A stretch of DNA of 64,000 bases from the NCBI RefSeq assembly GCF_041053055.1, contig NZ_CP163443.1:9035001-9099000 (forward strand). Direction: 5' to 3'. Origin of the DNA: Streptomyces sp. R41 (GTDB lineage: Bacteria > Actinomycetota > Actinomycetes > Streptomycetales > Streptomycetaceae). The position numbers and the translations under genes were made by a program. The notes under the pieces were generated by a model, which did no database searches, had not been told where the DNA came from, and saw nothing but the letters and a program-made list of their open reading frames with translations. Numbering within the stretch: position 1 is the stretch's first letter; each line of letters opens with the position of its first letter. Below are positions 1,688-16,993 of this stretch, piece by piece.

Positions 1688-4206
1688 CACTCCACCCTCC
1701 TGGCCAGTTGATCGGCGGTCGGCGTCGGGCCGCCACCCGTGTAAGTGACCTTCCACAGTGCCGACTTGGAGTCCGAGGTGAAGAAGCCGCGCCCGTAGTC
1801 GAGGACATACAGCGCGCCGTCCGGTCCGAACTTCCAGTCCATGAGGTTCTTGATGCCGTCGTTGCCGATGGGCACGATCTTCTTCAGCGACTCGGAGTGG
1901 ATCGGCAGGCCGCCGTCACCGGCCGTCTTCGGGTCGGTGAGGACGGCGTTGCGTGGCTGGTCGGAGTCGTAGAAGTCGCCGACGAACCACTTGCCGTCCC
2001 AATAGGCGGGCCATTTCGCGGAGTTGAGGATCGAGGCGTCGTACCGGTAGACCGGCCCGTTCATCGCCGCTTGGCCGCCGCCCTTCAGCCACGGCAGCAG
2101 ATAGGTGGCCTCCTCCTGCTTGTACGAGGGGATGCCGTTCGCGTCGCGGGGATAGTCCGGTGCGCCGCCCTGGGGCGAGTACCAGATGTTGTTGCCGGTG
2201 ACCGGCGGGAGGTTGACGAGGCCGTCGTTGTTCGGGGACTCGTTCTTGGGGTGGTCGCAGTCGTACCAGCCGAGCGGCTTGGTCGGGTCGGGCAGATTGC
2301 GGTCCCGGTAGGGCTGCTTGTTGCCCATGCAGTACGGCCAACCCCGGTTGCTCGCCTTGGTGATGACGGCGAAGGTGTCGTACTTGGCGGGGCCCCATGT
2401 GGTCGACGGCTCGCTCGCGTCCGGGCCGACCCACCCGGCGTACAGGGTGTCGGTCTTCTTGTCGACGGAGATCCGGGCGGGGTTCCTGACGCCCATGACA
2501 TAGATCTCGCCGCGGGTCTTGCCGCCACCCTCGGCGGTCTCTTCACCAGTGAAGAGATTCCCCTCCGGCAGCGTGTACGTGCCGTCGGGTTCCGGGTGGA
2601 TGCGCAGGATCTTGCCGTTGAGGTTGTTGGTGTTGCCCGCGGTGCGGCGCGCGTCCGCGAACGACACGCCCTTGTAGTTGGGTTCGGGGTTGTTGCCCGA
2701 GTAACCGTCGCTGAAGCGACTGGAGTTGTTGTCACCGGTCGCGATGTAGAGATTGCCCTTGGAATCCCAGGCCATCCCGCCGCCCGCGTGGCAGCAACTG
2801 TGGATCTGCACCGGCCACTTGAGGAGCACCTTCTCGCTGCTCAGGTCCAGCTTGTTGGTGGCGAGATCGAGTGTGAAGCGGGAGACGCGGCGCTCGGCCA
2901 TCTGCGTGTCGCGGTTGATCTGCGAGTGTGGTGTGTAGTGCAGATACACCCAGCCGTTCTGCTCGAACTTCGGATCGATCTCGATGCCGAGCAGGCCCTC
3001 CTCGACCTTGATCAGCTCGTCGCCGCCGCCCTTGTTGCCGAACACGGTGAGCGCGCCGGCCAGGGTGACCTTGCTGGTCCTGGGGTCGTAGACGTGGATC
3101 TCGCCCTTGCCCTTGCCGACGTCCGGGTTGTTCCAGTCGGTGATGACGGGCTGGGAGGAGTCCGCGCCGCCGCGGCCGATGTAGAGCACCCGTCCGTCGG
3201 GTGCGGTCACCAGCCCGTGCGGCTCGCCGATCTGATCGTTCTGGCCCGGCTGATTGGGCTGTGTCAGGCGCTCCGCCTTGTAATTGGCGTTGATCGCCGC
3301 CTTGCAGTCGGCCTGCACGAGCCGGGTCGTCCAGAGCAGGGCGCCGCGCAGATGCGTACGGAAGTCGCTCTCGTCGTACGACGAAGCAGTGCCGCCCATT
3401 CCGGTGTAGAAGGAGCGGCCGCCGTCGTAGTCGCGGCACCAACTCACGGGATGGTCCCAGCCGTTCTTGCTCGCACCCGGCTGATACGTCGACTCGCGCA
3501 CCCTGGCCACGGTGTGCACCTCGCCCGACGGGTTCTTCACCCAGTTGAGCCACTGGTCGGGGCGCTTCCACTGGACCGGGAGGTCCTTGGTGGCGGGGTG
3601 CTGCCGGTCGCCTACCTCAACGGTCGCTCGCTGTACGTTCGTCGGGCTCGTGCTCGCCGGACGGGCACCGATGAGTCCGGTGAACCAGTCCGAATACGGT
3701 TCGGCTCGGGCTGCGTCATGGACGCCGACGAAACCGCCGCCCGCTTTCATGTACGCCTCCAGGCCGGCCTCCTGCTCCGGGTCGAGGACGTCCCCGCCAC
3801 CGGTGAGGAAGACGACGGCGTTGAACCGGCCCAGCTTCGTCTCGTTCGTGAAGACCGAGGCGTCGTCCGTCGTCTCGACCTTGAAGCGCTGCGCGGCCGG
3901 ACCGGACAGTCCGATCTTCTCGATGGCCTCGATCCCGGCGTTCACGACCGGCGACTCGTCCCCGGCCGCCGCCGAGCCGTAGAAGATCAGCACCCGTACA
4001 TTGGCCCCGCCCGGTGGCGACTTGACGGACATCGTTGTCAACGCCGGATCCGGAGCCGGGCCCGCACTCGCGGACGGTGCCGAGAGCACCCCGGCGGTGA
4101 CGGCTCCGGCGGCCAGGGCGGCGGCCCAGGCGCGGCGCCGGCTTCTGCGTCTTCTCGCGCTCAACCCTCGTAATTCTGACGGTGTTTGATGCGATGTGAA
4201 CCGCAT
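1687..4206 (-). CDS. Secreted ThuA domain / PQQ-type sugar (sorbosone) dehydrogenase fusion
   Basis: About 839 residues. A basic N-terminus and signal peptide end near SASAGPA. A ThuA (glutamine-amidotransferase-like) domain follows, with VRVLIFYG, VVFLTGGGDVLD and GGGFVGVHDA motifs. The rest is a glucose/sorbosone dehydrogenase beta-propeller with the HSCCHAGGG motif and repeated blade sequences (GNLYIATGDNN, GEIYVMGVRNPARIS, DGALYVLDYG). ThuA proteins are linked to 3-keto-sugar metabolism and the propeller family oxidises sugars using PQQ. The DUF1080 partner downstream fits keto-sugar chemistry outside the cell. Start: a GTG at 4218 directly abuts GAGGAG, leaving no spacing, so ATG 4206 (11-nt spacing) is preferred. 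Substrate unknown. Confidence 0.9.
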   Translation of the reverse strand: MRFTSHQTPSELRGLSARRRRSRRRAWAAALAAGAVTAGVLSAPSASAGPAPDPALTTMSVKSPPGGANVRVLIFYGSAAAGDESPVVNAGIEAIEKIGLSGPAAQRFKVETTDDASVFTNETKLGRFNAVVFLTGGGDVLDPEQEAGLEAYMKAGGGFVGVHDAARAEPYSDWFTGLIGARPASTSPTNVQRATVEVGDRQHPATKDLPVQWKRPDQWLNWVKNPSGEVHTVARVRESTYQPGASKNGWDHPVSWCRDYDGGRSFYTGMGGTASSYDESDFRTHLRGALLWTTRLVQADCKAAINANYKAERLTQPNQPGQNDQIGEPHGLVTAPDGRVLYIGRGGADSSQPVITDWNNPDVGKGKGEIHVYDPRTSKVTLAGALTVFGNKGGGDELIKVEEGLLGIEIDPKFEQNGWVYLHYTPHSQINRDTQMAERRVSRFTLDLATNKLDLSSEKVLLKWPVQIHSCCHAGGGMAWDSKGNLYIATGDNNSSRFSDGYSGNNPEPNYKGVSFADARRTAGNTNNLNGKILRIHPEPDGTYTLPEGNLFTGEETAEGGGKTRGEIYVMGVRNPARISVDKKTDTLYAGWVGPDASEPSTTWGPAKYDTFAVITKASNRGWPYCMGNKQPYRDRNLPDPTKPLGWYDCDHPKNESPNNDGLVNLPPVTGNNIWYSPQGGAPDYPRDANGIPSYKQEEATYLLPWLKGGGQAAMNGPVYRYDASILNSAKWPAYWDGKWFVGDFYDSDQPRNAVLTDPKTAGDGGLPIHSESLKKIVPIGNDGIKNLMDWKFGPDGALYVLDYGRGFFTSDSKSALWKVTYTGGGPTPTADQLARRVE

Positions 4207-4365: not shown

Positions 4366-6231
<1,866 letters not shown>

Positions 6232-9605: not shown

Positions 9606-9611
9606 TAAGGT
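9606..9611 (+). promoter_or_regulatory. Candidate -10 element for the tRNA-SDR-LRR unit
   Basis: TAAGGT is a good Streptomyces-type -10 hexamer, placing the start of transcription only a few bases before the first tRNA at 9624. A weak -35 (CGGACG, 9583-9588) lies 17 bp upstream. If active, it would transcribe both tRNAs and, without an obvious terminator, the following protein genes. Confidence 0.4.
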
Positions 9612-9623
9612 CCGGGGGCGCAT

Positions 9624-9695
9624 CCGGGCGTAGCGCAGAGGCAGGCGCACCTGCATGGCATGCAGGAAACGCCGGTTCGAATCCGGCCGCCGGGA
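9624..9695 (+). tRNA. Atypical tRNA-Ala(GGC)-like gene
   Basis: 72 nt, manually folded. Acceptor arms are 9624-9630 and 9688-9694, with six pairs and a G-G mismatch at 3:70. D arm 9633-9648 has a 4-bp GCGC stem and an 8-nt loop. Anticodon stem CCTGC/GCAGG (9650-9654, 9662-9666) has a 7-nt loop and anticodon GGC at 9657-9659. The variable loop is 4 nt and the T arm (9671-9687) has the invariant TTCGAAT loop. Discriminator A9695; no encoded CCA. The anticodon arm and its flank match the standard tRNA-Ala(GGC), but the acceptor lacks the G3:U70 pair that alanyl-tRNA synthetase recognises. Normal alanylation is therefore doubtful. Confidence 0.7.
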
Positions 9696-9705
9696 CCGGC
9701 GCATC

Positions 9706-9777
9706 GGTCCTGTAGAGCAGAGGCAGACTCGCCGCCCTCTCAAGGCGGATACGCCGGTTCGAATCCGGCCGGGACCA
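9706..9777 (+). tRNA. Atypical tRNA-Glu(CTC)-like gene
   Basis: 72 nt, manually folded. The acceptor is GGTCCTG (9706-9712) with CGGGACC (9770-9776), seven pairs including one G-U. D arm 9715-9730 has three pairs plus a C-A mismatch and the same 8-nt loop as the first tRNA. Anticodon stem CCGCC/GGCGG has anticodon CTC at 9739-9741. The T arm 9753-9769 is identical to that of the first tRNA. Discriminator A9777; no encoded CCA. It starts 10 bp after the first tRNA, and both follow the same GGCGCATC octamer. The anticodon arm matches normal tRNA-Glu(CTC), while the acceptor stem differs. The next coding gene begins 28 bp downstream. Confidence 0.72.
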
Positions 9778-9805
9778 CGGCAGCGCATACGTGGGGCGGG
9801 GACAC

Positions 9806-11149
9806 ATGGGTGACGGTGGGGGGATCACGGAGGACGAGCTGGCGGGCTTCCACCGTACGGTCGGAAAGCTGCGGGCTCTGCCCGTCGAGGACCCGGTGCG
9901 GTTGCGTGCCGAGCGGGTAGCCGCTTCCTTCGCGCGCGACGGGCGGTTGCGCAGGCGGAAGGCGCGCGGCGCCGAGCTGTCCGCCGCCGACGCGGCCGCG
10001 ATGGCGGCGACCGCGACCGGGGCGCTCGACCGGCGGGAGGACGCGCCGCTGGCCCACCCCGGTGCGGCCGGTGCGGGGGGCGTTTTCGTCAAGCCGCGCA
10101 CCTGCTATGTCTGCAAGACGTCCTATCGACAGGTCGACTCCTTCTACCACCGGCTGTGCCCGGACTGCGCCGCCGACAACACCGCACGGCGGGGGCTCAG
10201 CACCGACCTGAGCGGCCGCCGTGCGCTGCTCACCGGGGGCAGGGTCAAGATCGGCTTCCAGCTGGCCCTGATGATGCTCCGCGACGGCGCCGAACTCCTG
10301 GTCACCAGCCGTTTTCCGCACGACACCGTGCGCCGCTTCCGCGCCGAACCGGGGAGCGAGAAGTGGCTGGACCGGCTGACGGTGCTCGCCGTGGACCTGC
10401 GCGATCCACGGCAGGTCCTCGGGCTGTGCGAACAGTTGCGGCAGGAGGGCGAGCCGCTCGACATCCTGGTGAACAACGCGGCGCAGACGGTGCGGAGGCC
10501 CCCGGAGTCGTACGCGTTGCTCGCCGCGGGGGAGTACGCCGAACTGCCCGAGGGAGCCCGGCAGGCGCCGGGGTTCACGCCGATGCGGGCACTGGAGGGA
10601 GGCCCCTCGGCGCTGCCCGTGGTGCTGCGCGAGGCCGACGAGGCCGGGCTTCTGCCCGACCCCTCCCCGGACAACTCCTGGTCGGCGCGGCTCGGCGAAC
10701 TCGACCCGGCCGAGGTGCTGGAGACACAGCTGGTCAACGCGCTCGCTCCAGCGCTCCTCTGCGACCGGCTGCTGCCGCTGCTGCTCGCCTCACCGCAGCC
10801 GCGCCGCTATGTCGTCAACGTGACCGCCGTCGAGGGCCGGTTCGCGGTCCGCAACAAGATGGCCGGCCATCCGCACACCAACATGGCCAAGGCCGCCCTC
10901 AATATGCTCACACGCACCAGCGCCGCCGAACTGGCGGAGCGGGGCGTGCACATGTGCGCCGTCGACACGGGGTGGATCACCGACGAGAACCCCGCTCCGA
11001 AGAAGGGACGCATAGCGGGCGCCGGGTTTCGCACGCCGCTCGACATCGTGGACGGGGCGGCCCGGGTGTACGACCCGATCGTGCGGGGTGAGGCGGGCGA
11101 GCCCCTGTCCGGGGTGTTCCTCAAGGACTACCAGGCGGCGGAGTGGTGA
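9806..11149 (+). CDS. Zinc-ribbon SDR-fold protein lacking the catalytic Ser/Tyr
   Basis: 447 residues from ATG 9806 (GTG 9791 is an alternative). An N-terminal helical region of about 95 residues leads to a Cys4 zinc ribbon (Cys100, Cys103, Cys118, Cys121). A Rossmann fold follows with TGGRVKIG (143-150) and NNAA (223-226). Classical SDR residues are altered: Thr340 stands at the catalytic Ser, Thr358 at the Tyr of YxxxK, while Lys362 is kept. A long insertion (about 228-300) precedes the active-site region. The protein should bind NAD(P) but is unlikely to be an ordinary dehydrogenase. It follows the two tRNAs by 28 bp and its stop overlaps the LRR gene start (GTGA). Confidence 0.85.
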   Translation: MGDGGGITEDELAGFHRTVGKLRALPVEDPVRLRAERVAASFARDGRLRRRKARGAELSAADAAAMAATATGALDRREDAPLAHPGAAGAGGVFVKPRTCYVCKTSYRQVDSFYHRLCPDCAADNTARRGLSTDLSGRRALLTGGRVKIGFQLALMMLRDGAELLVTSRFPHDTVRRFRAEPGSEKWLDRLTVLAVDLRDPRQVLGLCEQLRQEGEPLDILVNNAAQTVRRPPESYALLAAGEYAELPEGARQAPGFTPMRALEGGPSALPVVLREADEAGLLPDPSPDNSWSARLGELDPAEVLETQLVNALAPALLCDRLLPLLLASPQPRRYVVNVTAVEGRFAVRNKMAGHPHTNMAKAALNMLTRTSAAELAERGVHMCAVDTGWITDENPAPKKGRIAGAGFRTPLDIVDGAARVYDPIVRGEAGEPLSGVFLKDYQAAEW

Positions 11150-12093
11150 GCGGGTCCCGGACCGAGCCCGAGTCCTGTTCCGATTGCGATTCTGGGTACG
11201 AGTCCGAGTCCGCGCCGGAGTTCGCGGGCGTGCCATCCGTCGTGCCTCGTCCGGTGGCCGAACTGGCGCCGCTGCTCGGCTGGTTGCGCGGTGGCCGTCC
11301 GGCAGGGGAGCGGCTGGACTTCACGGCGGGTACGGCGCTGCCCGACGGCCGGCTCGACCTGTGCAAGCAGGGGATCGGGGCGGAAGGTGCCGCGCTGGTC
11401 GCCGAGGTGCTGTCCGAAAGGTTCGAAGGGCCGTCTCCCGTACGTCACTTGCTGCTCGGCACCGACGGGCTCGGCGACGACGGCGCAGCCGCCGTGGCCG
11501 CGGGCGCGAACGTAGAGACGCTCTACCTCGGCTGCAACGGCATCGCCGCGGGAGGCGCCTGCCGCATCGCCGACAACCTGCGCGCCTCGCCGCGCGTCGT
11601 CACCGGCGTTTGGCTCAAGCGCAACCCGCTCGGCAGCGGGGGAGGGCAGGCCGCGGCCGAACTCATCGAGGCGGCCCGATCGCTGCGCACGCTCGACCTC
11701 GTGCAGACCGGCCTCGACGGGGCGGGCACGGCCGTCCTGGCCGACGCCCTCCTCGCCGCGGCGGACACCGGTCGCCGCGTCGAGCGGCTGTTCATCGGCG
11801 GAAACCCCCTGGGCGCGGACGGTGCGGTGCCCCTGGCCGCCCTGATCGTCGCGGGCGCGATCGACGAACTCTAGGTGTCGGCGGCGCAGTTGGGCGACGA
11901 GGGCGCGCTCCGTCTCGCCGGCGCCCTGGGACGGGCGCCGTACGGGCGGCTCGTCCGGCTCTCCGTCGCAAGCAACGGCGTCGGGCCGACAGCCGCCGCC
12001 CGACTGGTGAAGGCCGCGACCTCGGCCGGAGTCACCCTCCTCGACCTGGGGAGGGTGCGCGCGGCCGCCGTCCTCGGCGCGGCCGACAACCTG
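11146..12093 (+). pseudogene. Leucine-rich-repeat (ribonuclease-inhibitor type) gene, in-frame TAG and lost 3' end
   Basis: The start GTG (11146, or 11143) overlaps the SDR stop, implying coupled translation. After a Pro/Ser-rich N-terminus come repeats of 28-30 residues: VRHLLLGTDGLGDDGA, VETLYLGCNGIAAGGA, VTGVWLKRNPLGSGGG, LRTLDLVQTGLDGAG, VERLFIGGNPLGADGA. An in-frame TAG at 11872-11874 falls exactly where each repeat has a residue after Leu. Translation would otherwise continue with two or three more repeats (VSAAQLGDEGA, LVRLSVASNGVGPTAA, VTLLDLG). Similarity to repeats ends near 12090, where sequence from a convergent gene begins. RI-type LRRs usually bind proteins. The product ending at TAG would have about 242 residues and five repeats. 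Confidence 0.75.
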
Positions 12094-12412
12094 AATATCT
12101 CCGTCCAGAACCGCTGCTGCTCGTACGTGGCGCCCACGAGATACGTCGCCCGCAGCTTCGGCGGCAGCAGGGGAACCAGCCGGGCCACCACCTTCCGGTG
12201 TTTCTTCCACTGGGACAGCTCGGCGTTGGCGAGGATCTGGTGCACCACGTCGCTGTCATCGGCGCCTTCGTCGGAGTGCTTGTACGGCCCATCAGGTCCG
12301 GCAGCTCCTGCTCGGCGCCCGCATGCCCGCGACGGGCCGCGAGCAGCGCGTTGAGCAGCGCAGAGGAGGAGACCTTGTCGAAGTTCTCCTGGTCGGCGGG
12401 CACGTCGGACAT
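12091..12412 (-). pseudogene. Remnant of an unknown gene, frameshifted and 3'-truncated
   Basis: From ATG 12412 one frame reads MSDVPADQENFDKVSSSALL and on to QELPDLM. A second frame then reads GPYKHSDEGADDSDVVHQIL through KLRATYLVGATYEQQRFWTE, ending near 12091, where the sequence becomes the antisense of the LRR gene. The frame switch is near 12290-12300. The composition (charged, with a coherent amphipathic C-terminal part) looks coding in both pieces. I do not recognise the family. The tail-to-tail junction with the truncated LRR gene suggests a deletion that removed both 3' ends. Confidence 0.5.
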
Positions 12413-12550
12413 GAGATGGACGCACAGCCGAACTCGATCGCGCGTCGCGACGTGCTGTTGTCATGCGTAGGCGCAAGATGCCTGGGCGGCCCGGCGGTCC
12501 GCACCGGGAAATCAGTACGCCGCACGGCTTCCAGCAGGCACAATCCCCGC

Positions 12551-15500
12551 ATGACCCGCACCCCGCAGCAGGACGCCGACAGTCTGCTGAACGCCCTCGA
12601 CCCGCTTGCGTACCCGCAGCGCATGCGCGAACTCGCCCTGCGGGTACCGGAAATGGTCCCGCTGCGGCCGGTGCTGGAGGAGCTCGAAGCCCGTGGCCCC
12701 TACGAGGGAGGGATCGCTGTCGTCGCGGCGTCCGTAGGCCGGGACGTCGAGTGGATCGCGGACCGCCTCGCCGCCCCGGACGCCTTCGTGCGCGGACACG
12801 CCCTGCGCGTCGCCGGGAGTCTGCATGTGCCCGACTCCGCCTACGAGGCGGCGCTCGACGACGCCCCGGAGGCGATCCGCAGAGAGCTGCTGTGCGCGAT
12901 CGTCGCCGCACGGCGCACCGCGCTCGCCGACCGGCTGGTGGACGGACTGCGGCGCGACTGGGGCGACGCGGAGGCGGCGCGGCTGCTGCCCGGGTGCACG
13001 GCGGAGACGGTCGGCAGGCTGCTTCCCGAACTCTTCCACGCGGTCACCGGCTGGAGGGCCCTCGCCAAGCGGCATCCCGGAACCCTTCTCGACGTCGCCG
13101 AAAGGGAGTTGACCGCGCTGCCCGAGGCGTTGCGCGCCACCTGGTGGGCCCGGTACACGCCGGGCTTGGCCGCCACCGTCGGAGCGGAGCCACTGCGCGT
13201 GCTCGACCTGCTCGAACGCTTCGGGCCCGCCACACTTCCGTACCAACTGCACGAACGCCTCGGAGAGTTCGCGGCGGCCGACGCGAGCCGGCTGCTGAGG
13301 CTGCTGCTCCGTAGCGGATTCGCCGCGCGCCGCAGCCGGGCCCTGGGACCCGCCGTGCTGCGCAGGCTTGCCCGCTCCGGTGCGCCCGAACTCACCGCGT
13401 TCGGCAGGGCCTTGGCCGAGTGGGGCGATCTCGCGCCGCTCGTGAAGGCCCTGCCGCCCGCGCGACGCCACGCCTTCTACCAGGCCGCGCAGGAAGGCCG
13501 CGGAGCGGGTCACGTCACCATCGACGCCGTGATCCTCGAAGTGCTGCCCCGCAGTTGCGTCGCCGAGGAGGCCCGGCGGATGGCCGCCGTCGCACGCGAA
13601 AGCGGTGCCCTGCCGAACTCTCTGCTGCTCGCCGACTCCTTCCTGCCCGTTGCCGAAGTACGCGAACGGCTCGTCGAGGCCACCCGCCGCCCGGCCGCCG
13701 AAGACCGCGCCGAAGCCTGGCCGTTGCTCATCCGCAACGCCGCCCGCTCCGGCGACCGCGCGGCCGTCACATCGGTACTGGAGGAGATGGGGCGGCTGCG
13801 CAACGAACAGGACCCGGTGCGCTCGGCCGCGCTGTACGCCCTGTCCCGGCTGCGGCCCGCGCTGTTCACCGAGGACGCCGAGCCGCACCTCGACCGCATC
13901 GCGGTGGACGCCGTCGAGGCCCGCGACTCCTCGCCCGCCACCCGGCAGCACCTCAGCCGCCTCGCCGTCTCCGTGCTGCGCGAGCACGCGGCAGGCGGGG
14001 GACGGGAGTTGGTGAACTGGGCGCTGCGCACCCTCGTCCGTATCTCCGGCAACACCGGCGGCGCCGACCTCGGCCGGCTGGACGCGAGGCTGCGCCGCGG
14101 CCAGGAGCACCAGGTGTACGAGGCTCTGCGCCCCTGGATCGAGGCGGGCGCGGAGAAGGCCGACTACAGCCTCGCCTTCGCGCTCGCCCGCGCGGTGGGA
14201 CGCCGCGCGGCAGGCATGCCCGAGCTGCAGGAACTGCTGTGGCAGGCCATCCGTTACGGCAACGACGTGACCGTGCGCGCCGCCGTCGAGCTGTGGCTGG
14301 AGGCGCCCGCGACACGGGACGAGCGGGTGGCACGCATCCTCGCGCTGGAACCGTCCACGGGGGCGCTGTGGCCCGTCCGCCAGGTCGTCACCCGGCGCCG
14401 CACCGATCTGCTCGACCTGCTGCTCGCCGAGGCTCCTCCGTACGGGCGCTTTCTGACCAAGGGCACCCCCTGGACCGTACCGGCGGACCGTGACGTACGG
14501 CGTTGGGTGCCACGCCAACAGCTCGCGGTGGCACGGCAGTTGACGACGGAGGCCGAGGACGCCGGACTGCCGCTCTATCAGCGGGCCGCGGCCGTCGCAC
14601 AGAGTGCGCGAGTCCCGGGCAGGGGCGCCGATCTCGTACGTCGCTGGACGGACTCCCCGGACGTGGTGCTCGCCGAGGCGGCCCTCGCCGCGCTCGCCCG
14701 CACCGACCGGCCCGCCGACGCACTGCCCGAGCTGCTGGCACACGCGGGCGGCGAGCGGGCGCGGGTCGCCGTGTACGCGGCCACGCAGGCGTCCCGGTAC
14801 GCGGCGCCGTCACGCCTTGCCGAGCAGCTGCGCGCGGTGCTGTTCGCGCCGCGCGCCAAGGTGACCAGCCGCAAGGAGGCCGCCCGGCTCGCCGCCGTAC
14901 GGCTCCCGATGCCACGGGCGGCGGCGCTGCTGACCGAGGCGTACGCGGCGCCGGGCGCCCACCTCGACGTCCGCGCCGCCTGCGTGGCCTTCGCGGGCGG
15001 CCTGCTCGCCCAGGAACCGGTCTGGGACCTGCTGCGCGACGCCGCCGGCGCCGAGCCGGTGCTGCGCACCGCTGTCCTGCGGGTGTCCCCCCTCGACCTG
15101 CCCGAGCCCGACCGCGAGCGGTACGCCCAGCTGGTGCGCGAGGTGTCCTCCACCGACGACCCGGAGACCGCGACCCTCGCCTTCGACGCCCTGGCCCGCT
15201 GGGCGCCCTGGTCACCGCAGGCCCCGACGGTCCTCGCCGACGCCGTCACCGACCTGACGGCACGCACGAGCTGGCGCGCCGCGGCCAACGGTCTGGTGAC
15301 CGCGGCGGCGGGCTCGCCACGGGGTGGCCTGGGGCTCGAGCAGGCGCTGAGGACGTTGGCCGAGGCGGAGACCGCCGCCACGGCGGAAGACGTCAGCCAT
15401 GCCGATGCCGACGAGCGGCGCGACCGGCCCGCCCGGCAGCGCGTCGACTACCTTGTCGCGCGCCTCGCCCAGCAGGCCAGGACGGTCCCGGCACCCATCC

Positions 15501-15916
15501 GCCCCGCGGCCCTCGCCGCCGGTGAGCTGCTGGCCGGGTACGACGCCTTCGTCCCGCAGGCGGCCGCCATCACGGCGTTCCACCTGGACCTGGACGAGGA
15601 GCCGGCGCGGCTGGAGCGGTTGGCCGCCCTCACCGACGGCCGCCCGGCGCTCGCCGCCCGGACGGCCGGGGAACTCGGCGAGCGGCTGCGGCGGCAGGCG
15701 CATGAGGGGGATCCCGAGGTACTGCTCGACGCGGTACGGCGCCTCACCGCCCACGGCGGGCACGGCGAGGGGCTGCTCGCGGCGGCCGTCACCGGGGCGA
15801 TCGGCAGCCGTACGGGCTGGGCCGCGCCCTGGCGGGAGCGGCTGAGAGCACTACGCCGCCACCCGGTGGCCGACGTGCGGGACGCGGCGCTGGACCAGGT
15901 GACGGCGTACGAGTAG
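12551..15916 (+). CDS. Large HEAT-repeat-like protein
   Basis: 1121 residues from ATG 12551, with only a weak AGCAGG upstream; an in-frame extension back to 12323 overlaps the gene remnant and is unlikely. The protein is almost entirely helical Ala/Leu/Arg-rich repeats with HEAT-like units (for example LADRLVDGLRRDWGD, DRAAVTSVLEEMGRLRNEQDPVRSAALYALS). No signal peptide, membrane segment or catalytic motif is visible. HEAT scaffolds usually bind proteins or nucleic acids; the partner is unknown. It is a conserved-looking hypothetical type in Streptomyces, but I cannot name an ortholog. Confidence 0.85.
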   Translation: MTRTPQQDADSLLNALDPLAYPQRMRELALRVPEMVPLRPVLEELEARGPYEGGIAVVAASVGRDVEWIADRLAAPDAFVRGHALRVAGSLHVPDSAYEAALDDAPEAIRRELLCAIVAARRTALADRLVDGLRRDWGDAEAARLLPGCTAETVGRLLPELFHAVTGWRALAKRHPGTLLDVAERELTALPEALRATWWARYTPGLAATVGAEPLRVLDLLERFGPATLPYQLHERLGEFAAADASRLLRLLLRSGFAARRSRALGPAVLRRLARSGAPELTAFGRALAEWGDLAPLVKALPPARRHAFYQAAQEGRGAGHVTIDAVILEVLPRSCVAEEARRMAAVARESGALPNSLLLADSFLPVAEVRERLVEATRRPAAEDRAEAWPLLIRNAARSGDRAAVTSVLEEMGRLRNEQDPVRSAALYALSRLRPALFTEDAEPHLDRIAVDAVEARDSSPATRQHLSRLAVSVLREHAAGGGRELVNWALRTLVRISGNTGGADLGRLDARLRRGQEHQVYEALRPWIEAGAEKADYSLAFALARAVGRRAAGMPELQELLWQAIRYGNDVTVRAAVELWLEAPATRDERVARILALEPSTGALWPVRQVVTRRRTDLLDLLLAEAPPYGRFLTKGTPWTVPADRDVRRWVPRQQLAVARQLTTEAEDAGLPLYQRAAAVAQSARVPGRGADLVRRWTDSPDVVLAEAALAALARTDRPADALPELLAHAGGERARVAVYAATQASRYAAPSRLAEQLRAVLFAPRAKVTSRKEAARLAAVRLPMPRAAALLTEAYAAPGAHLDVRAACVAFAGGLLAQEPVWDLLRDAAGAEPVLRTAVLRVSPLDLPEPDRERYAQLVREVSSTDDPETATLAFDALARWAPWSPQAPTVLADAVTDLTARTSWRAAANGLVTAAAGSPRGGLGLEQALRTLAEAETAATAEDVSHADADERRDRPARQRVDYLVARLAQQARTVPAPIRPAALAAGELLAGYDAFVPQAAAITAFHLDLDEEPARLERLAALTDGRPALAARTAGELGERLRRQAHEGDPEVLLDAVRRLTAHGGHGEGLLAAAVTGAIGSRTGWAAPWRERLRALRRHPVADVRDAALDQVTAYE

Positions 15917-16015: not shown

Positions 16016-16993
16016 TCAGCCGGCGGCGCGTGCCGCCATGCGGGCCTTGCGGGCCGCGAGCTTCTCGTCGAACTTCGAGGCCTCCGCGTCCAGGCCGCGC
16101 ATGAAGAGGCCGAGCTCTTCCTGGGCCTGCAGGCCCTCGGGGCCGAAGCCGTCCATCTCCAGGACCTTGAGGTGGCGCAGCACCGGCTGGAGCACGTCGT
16201 CGTGGTGGATGCGCATGTTGTAGACCTCGCCGATGGCCATCTGCGCGGCGGCGCGCTCGAAGCCGGGCATGCCGTGACCGGGCATCCGGAAGTTGACCAC
16301 GACGTCGCGCACGGCCTGCATGGTCAGGTCGGGGGCCAGCTCGAATGAGGCCTTCAGGAGGTTGCGGTAGAAGACCATGTGCAGGTTCTCGTCGGTCGCG
16401 ATGCGCGCCAGCATGCGGTCGCAGACCGGGTCGCCCGACTGGTGACCGGTGTTGCGGTGCGAGATGCGGGTCGCGAGCTCCTGGAAGGCGACGTACGCGA
16501 CCGAGTGCAGCATCGAGTGGCGGTTGTCCGACTCGAAGCCCTCGCTCATGTGCGCCATGCGGAACGCCTCGAGCTTGTCGGGGTCGACGGCGCGGGAGGC
16601 GAGCAGGTAGTCGCGCATCACGATGCCGTGCCGGCCCTCCTCCGCGGTCCAGCGGTGCACCCAGGTGCCCCAGGCGCCGTCACGGCCGAAGAGCGTGGCG
16701 ATCTCGTGGTGGTAGCTCGGCAGGTTGTCCTCGGTGAGGAGGTTGACGACCAGCGCGATCCGGCCGATCTCGGTGACCTTGGACTGCTCCTTGTCCCAGG
16801 CCTCGCCGTCCTCGAAGAAGCCGGGGAAGTTGCGGGCGTCGCTGAACGGCACGTACTCGTGCGGCATCCAGTCCTTGGCCACCTTCAGGTGGCGGTTGAG
16901 CTCCGTCTCGACCACTTCTTCCAGCGCATACAGCAGTCGAGCGTCGGTCCAGGCGGCGGACGGGCTGCCGAGGTGGGGAGAAGTGATCGTCAC
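16016..16993 (-). CDS. Acyl-ACP (stearoyl-ACP type) desaturase
   Basis: 325 residues. This soluble di-iron desaturase introduces a double bond into acyl-ACP, using oxygen and ferredoxin, and so adjusts membrane fluidity. Di-iron ligands are visible in the two ExxH-type motifs, EEGRH (118-122) and DENLH (201-205), with additional carboxylates near TEDN (88) and FQELATR (172). Length and layout match the actinobacterial DesA family. The ATG at 16993 is preceded by a GGGGGA-type ribosome site. Four tandem palindromes at 17036-17095 lie upstream, suggesting repressor control. Confidence 0.93.
   Translation of the reverse strand: MTITSPHLGSPSAAWTDARLLYALEEVVETELNRHLKVAKDWMPHEYVPFSDARNFPGFFEDGEAWDKEQSKVTEIGRIALVVNLLTEDNLPSYHHEIATLFGRDGAWGTWVHRWTAEEGRHGIVMRDYLLASRAVDPDKLEAFRMAHMSEGFESDNRHSMLHSVAYVAFQELATRISHRNTGHQSGDPVCDRMLARIATDENLHMVFYRNLLKASFELAPDLTMQAVRDVVVNFRMPGHGMPGFERAAAQMAIGEVYNMRIHHDDVLQPVLRHLKVLEMDGFGPEGLQAQEELGLFMRGLDAEASKFDEKLAARKARMAARAAG

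What the first reader, a model, noticed from the sequence alone, without database searches (positions are those of the whole stretch)
9606..11874. Tandem altered tRNA genes leading an SDR-fold/LRR operon
Two 72-nt tRNA genes with intact anticodon arms of tRNA-Ala(GGC) and tRNA-Glu(CTC), but changed acceptor stems and identical T arms, sit 10 bp apart and 28 bp before a protein gene. No terminator is visible between them and the protein genes. The SDR-fold protein carries a zinc ribbon and lacks catalytic residues, and its stop overlaps an LRR gene. This suggests a linked system in which these tRNAs are bound or modified by the protein outside normal translation. The link is inferred from spacing only.
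Basis: partly seen in the sequence, partly recalled or inferred. Interest (0 to 1): 0.8.

Follow-up and report, generated by a model that had tools for sequence, protein, structure and literature searches.

The report
Odd tRNA genes leading protein operon
In many actinobacteria a small family of odd tRNA-like genes, whose anticodons keep changing while the rest stays much the same, sits at the head of one conserved set of protein genes, which suggests tRNA-shaped RNAs working as parts of a protein machine rather than only in protein synthesis.

Summary
Two 72-nt tRNA-like genes stand 10 bp apart and 28 bp before a zinc-ribbon SDR-fold gene. Their RNA family is unlike the genome's other recovered tRNAs. 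Of 80 SDR relatives, 65 have such RNAs within 500 bp upstream; conversely 79 of 86 variable RNAs (71 of 77 without genomes chosen by the SDR and the window's own) have SDR or LRR downstream. LRR is kept in 41 of 63 loci with the RNA and 0 of 15 without. Anticodons switch often while base 36 is usually C. A second subfamily has a 9-bp acceptor stem supported by compensatory changes and mostly lacks U33. A nearly constant tRNA-Trp(CCA)-like member co-occurs. Fuller modules add MoxR, VWA and, in the second subfamily, ankyrin proteins; the window's copy is decayed.

One member is in print as 'tRNA-Asp-AUC', read as a GAU decoder (PMC9262613). Identity elements and structure make ordinary decoding doubtful for many members, though that paper reports it for one. 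Best reading: RNA parts of an RNA-protein module acting largely off the ribosome, perhaps as baits mimicking anticodon arms. Linkage is shown; mechanism is inferred.

The parts
9606..9611 (+). position of the -10-like box of the operon (TAAGGT here; TAGGAT in most relatives)
   Evidence: TAGGAT 16-19 nt before the first RNA in 41 of 65 loci with an ARAGORN call (window counted, which lacks it), 0.2% of random 45-nt windows
9624..9695 (+). tRNA-like RNA 1 (Ala-GGC anticodon arm, C1:G72 acceptor with one mismatch)
9706..9777 (+). tRNA-like RNA 2 (Glu-CTC anticodon arm, acceptor stem resembling the genome's tRNA-Asp)
9806..11149 (+). zinc-ribbon SDR-fold protein, 447 aa (alternative GTG start 9791)
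10103..10168 (+). zinc ribbon C100-C103-C118-C121 of the SDR protein
   Evidence: all four Cys invariant in 11 aligned homologues
11143..11874 (+). 5' part of a broken LRR gene (ORF ends at TAG; homology runs on to about 12090)
12093..12281 (-). remnant of the MoxR-type AAA ATPase gene (63 aa, 94% to L001)
12173..12430 (-). remnant matching the VWA/DUF2201 gene (87 aa, 59%); overlaps the MoxR remnant in coordinates

Best explanation
The two genes make tRNA-like RNAs that are the RNA parts of a conserved RNA-protein module: variable RNA(s), zinc-ribbon SDR-fold protein, LRR protein, (ankyrin protein,) MoxR ATPase and VWA protein, plus a nearly constant tRNA-Trp(CCA)-like RNA near by or elsewhere in the genome. 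I propose that the RNAs act mainly off the ribosome: the SDR and/or LRR/ankyrin proteins hold them, and their changing anticodon arms present look-alikes mostly of the G-N-N-decoding tRNAs (Ala, Gly, Asp, Glu, rarely Val) as bait for agents that attack or modify tRNA anticodon arms. MoxR/VWA would be the responding or remodelling part. Shown: the RNA family, its linkage and co-retention, anticodon switching, the C36 bias, the 9-bp acceptor of subfamily 2, and decay of the module in the window. Inferred: co-transcription, binding by the proteins, the bait role, the MoxR/VWA role.
For: Linkage both ways: 65 of 80 and 79 of 86. Co-retention: LRR or MoxR in 51 of 62 loci with the RNA, 0 of 13 without (p 2e-8; loci are related, so p is optimistic). 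Promoter-like box at a fixed distance before the first RNA (41 of 65), and still within 500 bp upstream in 7 of 16 loci where ARAGORN finds no upstream tRNA (2.7% of random 500-nt windows). Anticodon changes at one locus: at least 16 on the SDR tree for RNA 2 (42 loci) and 28 for RNA 1 (57 loci). C36 in 59 of 65 subfamily-2 RNAs and in 92 of 114 assigned subfamily-1 RNAs. Charging elements not kept: G3:U70 in 1 of 25 subfamily-1 Ala-type RNAs, and G73 does not follow the Asp anticodon (p 0.2). Subfamily 2: C33 in 43 of 65, U33 in 13 of 65; 9-bp acceptor. Trp-type and variable type co-occur in 17 of 392 genomes, 3.2 expected.
Against: PMC9262613 reports that one subfamily-2 RNA helps translate GAU codons and that A34G weakens its antibiotic phenotype. 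A nearly fixed C36 is not what free diversification under attack would give. Subfamily 1 has canonical 7/5 geometry, and the window's RNAs keep U33. No nuclease gene was recognised in the module and no specific defence match was found. SDR homologues exist without RNAs. 22 of 114 assigned subfamily-1 anticodons are not GNN type. Identity rules for charging are recalled general knowledge, not measured here.
Confidence: 0.35

Rival explanations
1. Accessory decoding tRNAs: the RNAs are charged and read GNN codons (GAU and others), raising translation of regulators; the neighbouring proteins are unrelated or assist. This is the published reading of one member.
For: PMC9262613 (abstract, passages, Results section on structure and context, and Discussion read): RNA expressed (48,557 small-RNA reads), GFP with six GAT codons made in S. 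coelicolor when the RNA is co-expressed, A34G weakens the antibiotic effect. C36 mostly kept, as for GNN decoding. 28 of 65 subfamily-2 RNAs have ATC or AGC, anticodons not among the tRNAs recovered from this genome.
Against: U33 replaced by C in 43 of 65 subfamily-2 RNAs and a 14-bp acceptor/T stack; 113 of 116 subfamily-1 RNAs, from many species, repeat an anticodon that the window's genome already has; no codon reason for SDR/LRR linkage; the charging state is not reported in that main text ('aminoacyl', 'acceptor', 'synthetase' 0 occurrences).
Confidence: 0.25
2. Dedicated aminoacyl donors: the RNAs are charged (small or acidic residues, and Trp), are kept off the ribosome by their long acceptor stem or odd loop, and hand amino acids to a reaction run by the SDR/LRR proteins.
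For: Anticodon classes mostly of GNN amino acids (59 of 65 and 92 of 114) plus a Trp type that co-occurs; long acceptor stem in subfamily 2; no ligase is needed if one of the proteins is an unknown transferase.
Against: Ala-type RNAs lack G3:U70 (24 of 25) and discriminators do not follow the anticodon; Ser-type RNAs lack the long variable arm (sequences); no known aminoacyl-transferase domain in the proteins scanned with Pfam/NCBIfam.
Confidence: 0.15
3. Cis leader: the RNAs are 5' ends of the operon mRNA, cut out by RNase P/Z or forming stems that tune transcription and translation of the SDR gene; they have no trans role.
For: Promoter-like box directly before the first RNA and a short gap to the SDR start (22-46 bp in 45 of 65 loci); T-rich tail after 19 of 65 subfamily-2 RNAs.
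Against: 0 of 116 subfamily-1 RNAs have such a tail, and no terminator was found in the window stretch. The C36 bias and a mostly free-standing Trp type (16 of 20 unlinked) that co-occurs with the linked type are not explained.
Confidence: 0.1
4. Hitch-hiking or relic: tRNA genes left by an integrative element, as suggested in PMC9262613, with no link to the proteins.
For: Module on chromosome arms (PMC9262613; window at 9.04 of 10.46 Mb); decay in the window and in several relatives.
Against: The same upstream neighbour (up395) is found in 50 of 80 SDR loci within the 6 kb held, so the place is old; compensatory changes and co-retention speak for selection.
Confidence: 0.05

Closest known systems
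tRNA-Asp-AUC of Streptomyces violaceusniger SPC6 and its locus (PMC9262613)
   Same: A mutagenic primer printed there (passage) matches the subfamily-2 RNA core found here (G053 hit) apart from its marked base; same order of 3' neighbours (gala LRR, a protein called PE-PGRS that probably corresponds to our ankyrin gene, MoxR, a hypothetical that probably corresponds to the VWA gene).
   Different: The window type has paired 7/5 RNAs with Ala/Glu and, in relatives, other anticodons, an SDR gene between RNA and LRR, and in relatives a Trp-type partner; the paper reports no homologues outside streptomycetes, whereas searches find them in another family (code f17, unnamed), mostly with the SDR.
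Ro60/Y RNA (YrlA) and Rtc RNA-repair operons
   Same: Works like: a tRNA-like non-coding RNA encoded beside its protein partner, one with a VWA domain (recalled; PMC7790460 seen in a search listing only).
   Different: No TROVE, RtcA or RtcB match among the proteins scanned; our RNAs keep a full cloverleaf. RtcR matches of MoxR are weak and cover the generic AAA part.
MoxR-vWA ternary conflict systems (PMC7159879)
   Same: MoxR ATPase paired with a VWA protein in multicellular actinobacteria (recalled, and search listing and passages); weak bpMoxR match of L149's MoxR (20.5 bits, cut-off 27).
   Different: In that paper's main text 'SDR' and 'leucine-rich' occur 0 times, 'tRNA' and 'LRR' once each, both in references (passages only).
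Allo-tRNAs and tRNA-Sec (recalled)
   Same: tRNAs with lengthened acceptor stems or unusual acceptor/T geometry.
   Different: Ours has a 9-bp acceptor plus 5-bp T stem and a short variable loop; no long variable arm.
SDR5C1/MRPP2 of mitochondrial RNase P (recalled)
   Same: An SDR-fold protein that works with tRNA.
   Different: No zinc ribbon, and catalytic residues kept there (recalled); binding here is not shown.

Membership tests
canonical translational tRNA | cloverleaf with 7-bp acceptor and 5-bp T stem | tested here: met
   Window RNAs and subfamily 1: strong pairing for 7 pairs, chance at pair 8 (43 of 116); the window's RNA 1 has one mismatch. Subfamily 2 fails, with 9 pairs, 62-65 of 65 standard at each
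canonical translational tRNA | U33 and a paired anticodon stem | tested here: inconclusive
   Window RNAs keep both; subfamily 2 has C33 in 43 of 65 and often a bulged stem
canonical translational tRNA | identity elements for the synthetase matching the anticodon | tested here: not met
   G3:U70 in 1 of 25 subfamily-1 Ala-type RNAs; G73 not tied to GTC; rules themselves recalled; Glu and Gly elements not tested
canonical translational tRNA | aminoacylated and on ribosomes in vivo | not testable with these tools
   needs acid-gel northern and polysome data
published tRNA-Asp-AUC locus (PMC9262613) | RNA homologous to the SPC6 RNA | tested here: met
   Subfamily 2 matches the printed primer core; the window RNAs share the GCAGAGG D loop and the T-arm core with subfamily 2
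published tRNA-Asp-AUC locus (PMC9262613) | AUC anticodon | tested here: not met
   Window GGC and CTC; ATC in 14 of 65 subfamily-2 RNAs
published tRNA-Asp-AUC locus (PMC9262613) | 3' LRR, second gene, MoxR and fourth gene | tested here: met
   Order LRR-ANK-MoxR-VWA in L149, L150, L152, L163; the window has only relics of LRR, MoxR and VWA
Ro60/Y RNA module | TROVE-domain protein next to the RNA | tested here: not met
   No TROVE hit for the ten module and neighbour proteins scanned with Pfam
known anti-phage defence system | specific PADLOC match | tested here: not met
   Among 8 proteins only weak matches in AAA or ankyrin regions; best PDC-M72A, 32 bits over the ankyrin repeats
active short-chain dehydrogenase | Ser/Thr-Tyr-Lys catalytic set (YxxxK, recalled) | tested here: not met
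   Thr358 replaces Tyr in 11 of 11; Lys362 invariant
SDR fold | Rossmann SDR fold | tested here: met
   adh_short 5.8e-17; Foldseek best hits are SDRs, model pLDDT 68 only

The most novel reading that the evidence does not exclude
A new kind of RNA-protein system: tRNA-shaped RNAs with fast-switching anticodons and, in one branch, a 14-bp acceptor/T stack serve as baits or guards for a zinc-ribbon pseudo-SDR, LRR and ankyrin proteins and a MoxR-VWA machine, together with a nearly constant tRNA-Trp-like partner RNA; the published GAU-decoding tRNA would then be one of its parts, misread as an accessory decoder.
Probability: 0.3. Interest if true: 0.92.

Novelty: new variant of a known kind. Interest (0 to 1): 0.77.

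Why it matters
If the RNAs work off the ribosome, bacteria hold a class of tRNA-derived parts in a protein machine that gene finders list as ordinary tRNAs, and a published explanation of antibiotic boosting by such an RNA needs to be re-examined. If they do decode, a tRNA with a 9-bp acceptor stem and C33 that functions on the ribosome would itself break textbook limits. Either way the question becomes directly testable in Streptomyces.

Tried and rejected
Chance or annotation artefact: rejected by linkage in both directions. Ordinary housekeeping array: the tRNA array at 7425 kb of the genome is ordinary Gln/Glu, and no other recovered tRNA has the D loop. 'All anticodon arms are copies of housekeeping arms': rejected, only 14 of 116 subfamily-1 arms and 0 of 65 subfamily-2 arms equal an arm of this genome. 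Charging-identity idea (G73 with Asp): no association. Phage or plasmid origin: the ten phage rows shown, of 14 records, are tRNA genes at 76-80% identity (four unlisted records are in the 80-90% band); the ten plasmid rows shown, of 22, cover 39-75% of the query. Known defence system: no specific hit. A conserved neighbour of the free-standing Trp-type RNAs: no similar gene pair among the genes called around 15 loci (none called in L195). The AlphaFold model is of low confidence (pLDDT 68) and was used only for the fold. Per-position conservation had the D arm and T loop fixed by the search pattern, so only other positions count.

Of the 86 variable RNAs, nine came from genomes first found by the SDR or from the window's own genome; without these it is 71 of 77. 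Two of 80 loci with too little downstream sequence were left out of the LRR table, and five out of the LRR-or-MoxR table.
Full report
WHAT IS THERE. The window is G000:C1:9035001-9099000 of a 10.46-Mb single-contig genome; the closest named relative of the SDR is from Streptomyces albiflavescens (96%). ARAGORN and Rfam both call the two RNAs. The anticodon arms are identical to those of the genome's tRNA-Ala(GGC) and tRNA-Glu(CTC); the D loop (GCAGAGGCAG) occurs in none of the other tRNAs recovered (66 of them), and an exact pattern over the whole genome finds only these two. The SDR-fold protein follows 28 bp later.

RELATIVES FOUND BY THE PROTEIN. A scan of the species-genome collection gave 175 relatives, of which the best 80 loci were kept. 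With ARAGORN plus a motif search, 65 of 80 have one to four odd RNAs within 500 bp upstream, and 55 of 80 have a downstream tRNA-Trp(CCA) call whose sequences share the odd D arm. In the fullest form the order is RNAs, SDR, LRR on one strand, then MoxR ATPase and VWA/DUF2201 protein on the other, with the Trp-type RNA near the VWA gene's start (Pfam). LRR is present in 41 of 63 loci that keep an upstream RNA and in 0 of 15 that do not; LRR or MoxR in 51 of 62 against 0 of 13 (loci with too little downstream sequence left out; the p values ignore relatedness). A TAGGAT box lies 16-19 nt before the first RNA in 41 of 65 loci with an ARAGORN call, against 0.2% of random 45-nt windows, and is found within 500 bp upstream in 7 of the 16 loci where ARAGORN finds no upstream tRNA, against 2.7% of random 500-nt windows. 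This supports one transcript but does not prove it.

RELATIVES FOUND BY THE RNA. Patterns for the D loop and T arm hit 7 of 150 and 55 of 392 Streptomyces genomes, with different patterns; 15 of 296 genomes of the class; and 34 of 250 genomes, 14 of 68 genera, of another family (code f17). In the loci fetched, 79 of 86 variable RNAs have SDR or LRR downstream on the same strand, all within 400 bp; 4 of 20 Trp-type RNAs lie within 1.5 kb of one (three with SDR downstream, one with LRR upstream). Dropping the genomes that had been chosen by the SDR and the window itself, 71 of 77 variable RNAs are linked. In the second subfamily the order is RNA, SDR, LRR, ankyrin protein, MoxR, VWA in f17 genomes (L156, L157; L156 was fetched only as far as MoxR), and the same without SDR in Streptomyces (L149, L150, L152, L163) and in one f17 genome (L155). 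Variable RNAs without SDR or LRR: L125, L131, L141, L185, L187, L212, and L221 (ankyrin only). The variable and Trp types, found by one pattern, co-occur in 17 of 392 Streptomyces genomes where 3.2 are expected. Genes called around 15 free-standing Trp-type RNAs show no similar pair.

RNA STRUCTURE. In 65 subfamily-2 RNAs each of nine acceptor pairs is standard in 62-65 sequences, with changes on both sides in at least one sequence at every pair (32 sequences at pair 6, 22 at pair 7), and at seven of the nine above the maximum of 500 shuffles; pair 10 holds in 55 of 65. In 116 subfamily-1 RNAs pairing is strong for seven pairs (103-115 of 116) and drops to chance at pair 8 (43 of 116, shuffled mean 40), which is an internal control; its pair 10 (73 of 116) is again above the shuffles (maximum 69), which I cannot explain. 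With the 5-bp T stem, subfamily 2 has a 14-bp stack, if the outer pairs survive end processing. Its base 33 is C in 43 of 65 and U in 13; base 36 is C in 59 of 65 (positions set by fixed offsets from the T arm). Counts are of sequences, not events.

ANTICODONS. At one homologous place the anticodon changes at least 16 times on the SDR tree for RNA 2 (42 loci: GTC 20, CTC 16, GCC 3, others 3) and 28 times for RNA 1 (57 loci) (quick tree, no shuffled control). In RNA 2, bases 36-37 (C-A) never vary in 42 sequences while 32, 34, 35 and 38 do. In subfamily 1, C36 holds in 92 of 114 assigned RNAs; the 22 exceptions are GCT (15), GCA (5) and CCA (2), and 13 of the GCT and all 5 GCA ones have C37. 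113 of 116 repeat an anticodon that the window genome's other tRNAs already provide. Charging elements do not follow: G3:U70 is present in 1 of 25 Ala-type RNAs, and G73 is not tied to the Asp anticodon (8 of 17 against 7 of 27, p 0.2). The identity rules used here are general knowledge.

THE PROTEINS. The SDR protein has an N-terminal helical part rich in Arg/Lys, a zinc ribbon and an SDR domain whose catalytic Tyr is Thr in 11 of 11 aligned homologues within an invariant HPHTNMAK. A low-confidence model matches SDR structures; no solved chain matches by sequence at 1e-20. A phylum-wide search finds the family in 26 of 296 genomes; of 27 loci checked (one an 83% orthologue, the rest at 42-53%) none has a tRNA in the flanks held, so the RNA link belongs to one branch of the SDR family and is not kept even there in every genome. 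The window's genome has such a second copy (L249).

THE WINDOW'S COPY IS DECAYED. The LRR ORF ends at a TAG inside the homologous region; homology then stops near 12090, followed by remnants of MoxR (63 aa) and VWA (87 aa); no Trp-type RNA was found in the genome with the exact pattern. RNA 1 has an acceptor mismatch and the promoter box reads TAAGGT. Function should therefore be studied in intact relatives such as L001.

PRIOR ART. PMC9262613 (abstract, passages, the section on structure and genome context, and the Discussion read) describes tRNA-Asp-AUC of S. violaceusniger SPC6. A primer printed there matches the subfamily-2 core, and its 3' neighbours match our LRR and MoxR genes in the same order. 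The authors show expression, GFP data read as GAU decoding, and more antibiotics in S. coelicolor; they note the odd anticodon stem and C33, report 32 streptomycete genomes and no homologues elsewhere, and suggest an integrative-element origin. Two reviews that cite it repeat that reading (passages). Searches (20 of 58 papers listed), 53, 93, 94 and 97 of the open library listed no paper that I recognised from title or abstract as describing the SDR link, the anticodon switching, the 9-bp acceptor or the Trp-type partner; subscription papers and preprints are not held there.

MECHANISM. Decoding is hard to square with absent charging elements, C33 and a 14-bp stack in subfamily 2, and with redundant anticodons in subfamily 1, yet the published reporter result and the C36 bias speak for it. 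Aminoacyl donation would explain C36 and insulation from the ribosome but not the missing G3:U70. A bait or guard role explains anticodon switching with a constant body and the linkage to repeat-protein and MoxR/VWA genes, but not C36 by itself. I rank bait/guard first at low confidence, and hold the broader claim, that the RNAs are parts of a selected RNA-protein module, at about 0.8.

Noticed in passing
window 16572-16639 (+): Rfam ASdes sRNA match (69.6 bits, cut-off 40); perhaps the conserved part of a desaturase gene (inference, not checked).
   Followed up: no
window 12551-15916 (+): 1121-aa protein without any Pfam hit at 0.01 or NCBIfam hit at 0.001 next to the module; full-length homologues also near the SDR in L004, L031 and L164.
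   Followed up: partly
L249 / G000:C1:9341135-9342538: A second zinc-ribbon SDR of the same family in the window's genome, with no tRNA in the 1.5 kb flanks.
   Followed up: partly
L169, L179-L182, L188, L189, L191, L193-L195, L133, L147, L162, L128: Free-standing tRNA-Trp-like RNAs (anticodon CCA; CCG in L128), mostly with long acceptor stems, and no shared neighbour found.
   Followed up: partly
L204-L209 and similar: T-rich tails right after some subfamily-2 RNAs (19 of 65 with at least 5 T in 8 nt), which could act as terminators or attenuators.
   Followed up: no
L067 (Allokutzneria) 3308-3382, 5442-5515, 5904-5978: Three odd RNAs spread over 2.7 kb upstream of one SDR gene.
   Followed up: no
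L251 / G000:C1:8106252-8106321: Weak tRNA match of 37.3 bits just upstream of a strong stem followed by a T run (sequence); not examined further.
   Followed up: no
subfamily-1 RNAs, pair 10 of the acceptor count: Bases three pairs beyond the 7-bp acceptor match more often than shuffles allow (73 of 116, maximum 69), although pair 8 is at chance.
   Followed up: no
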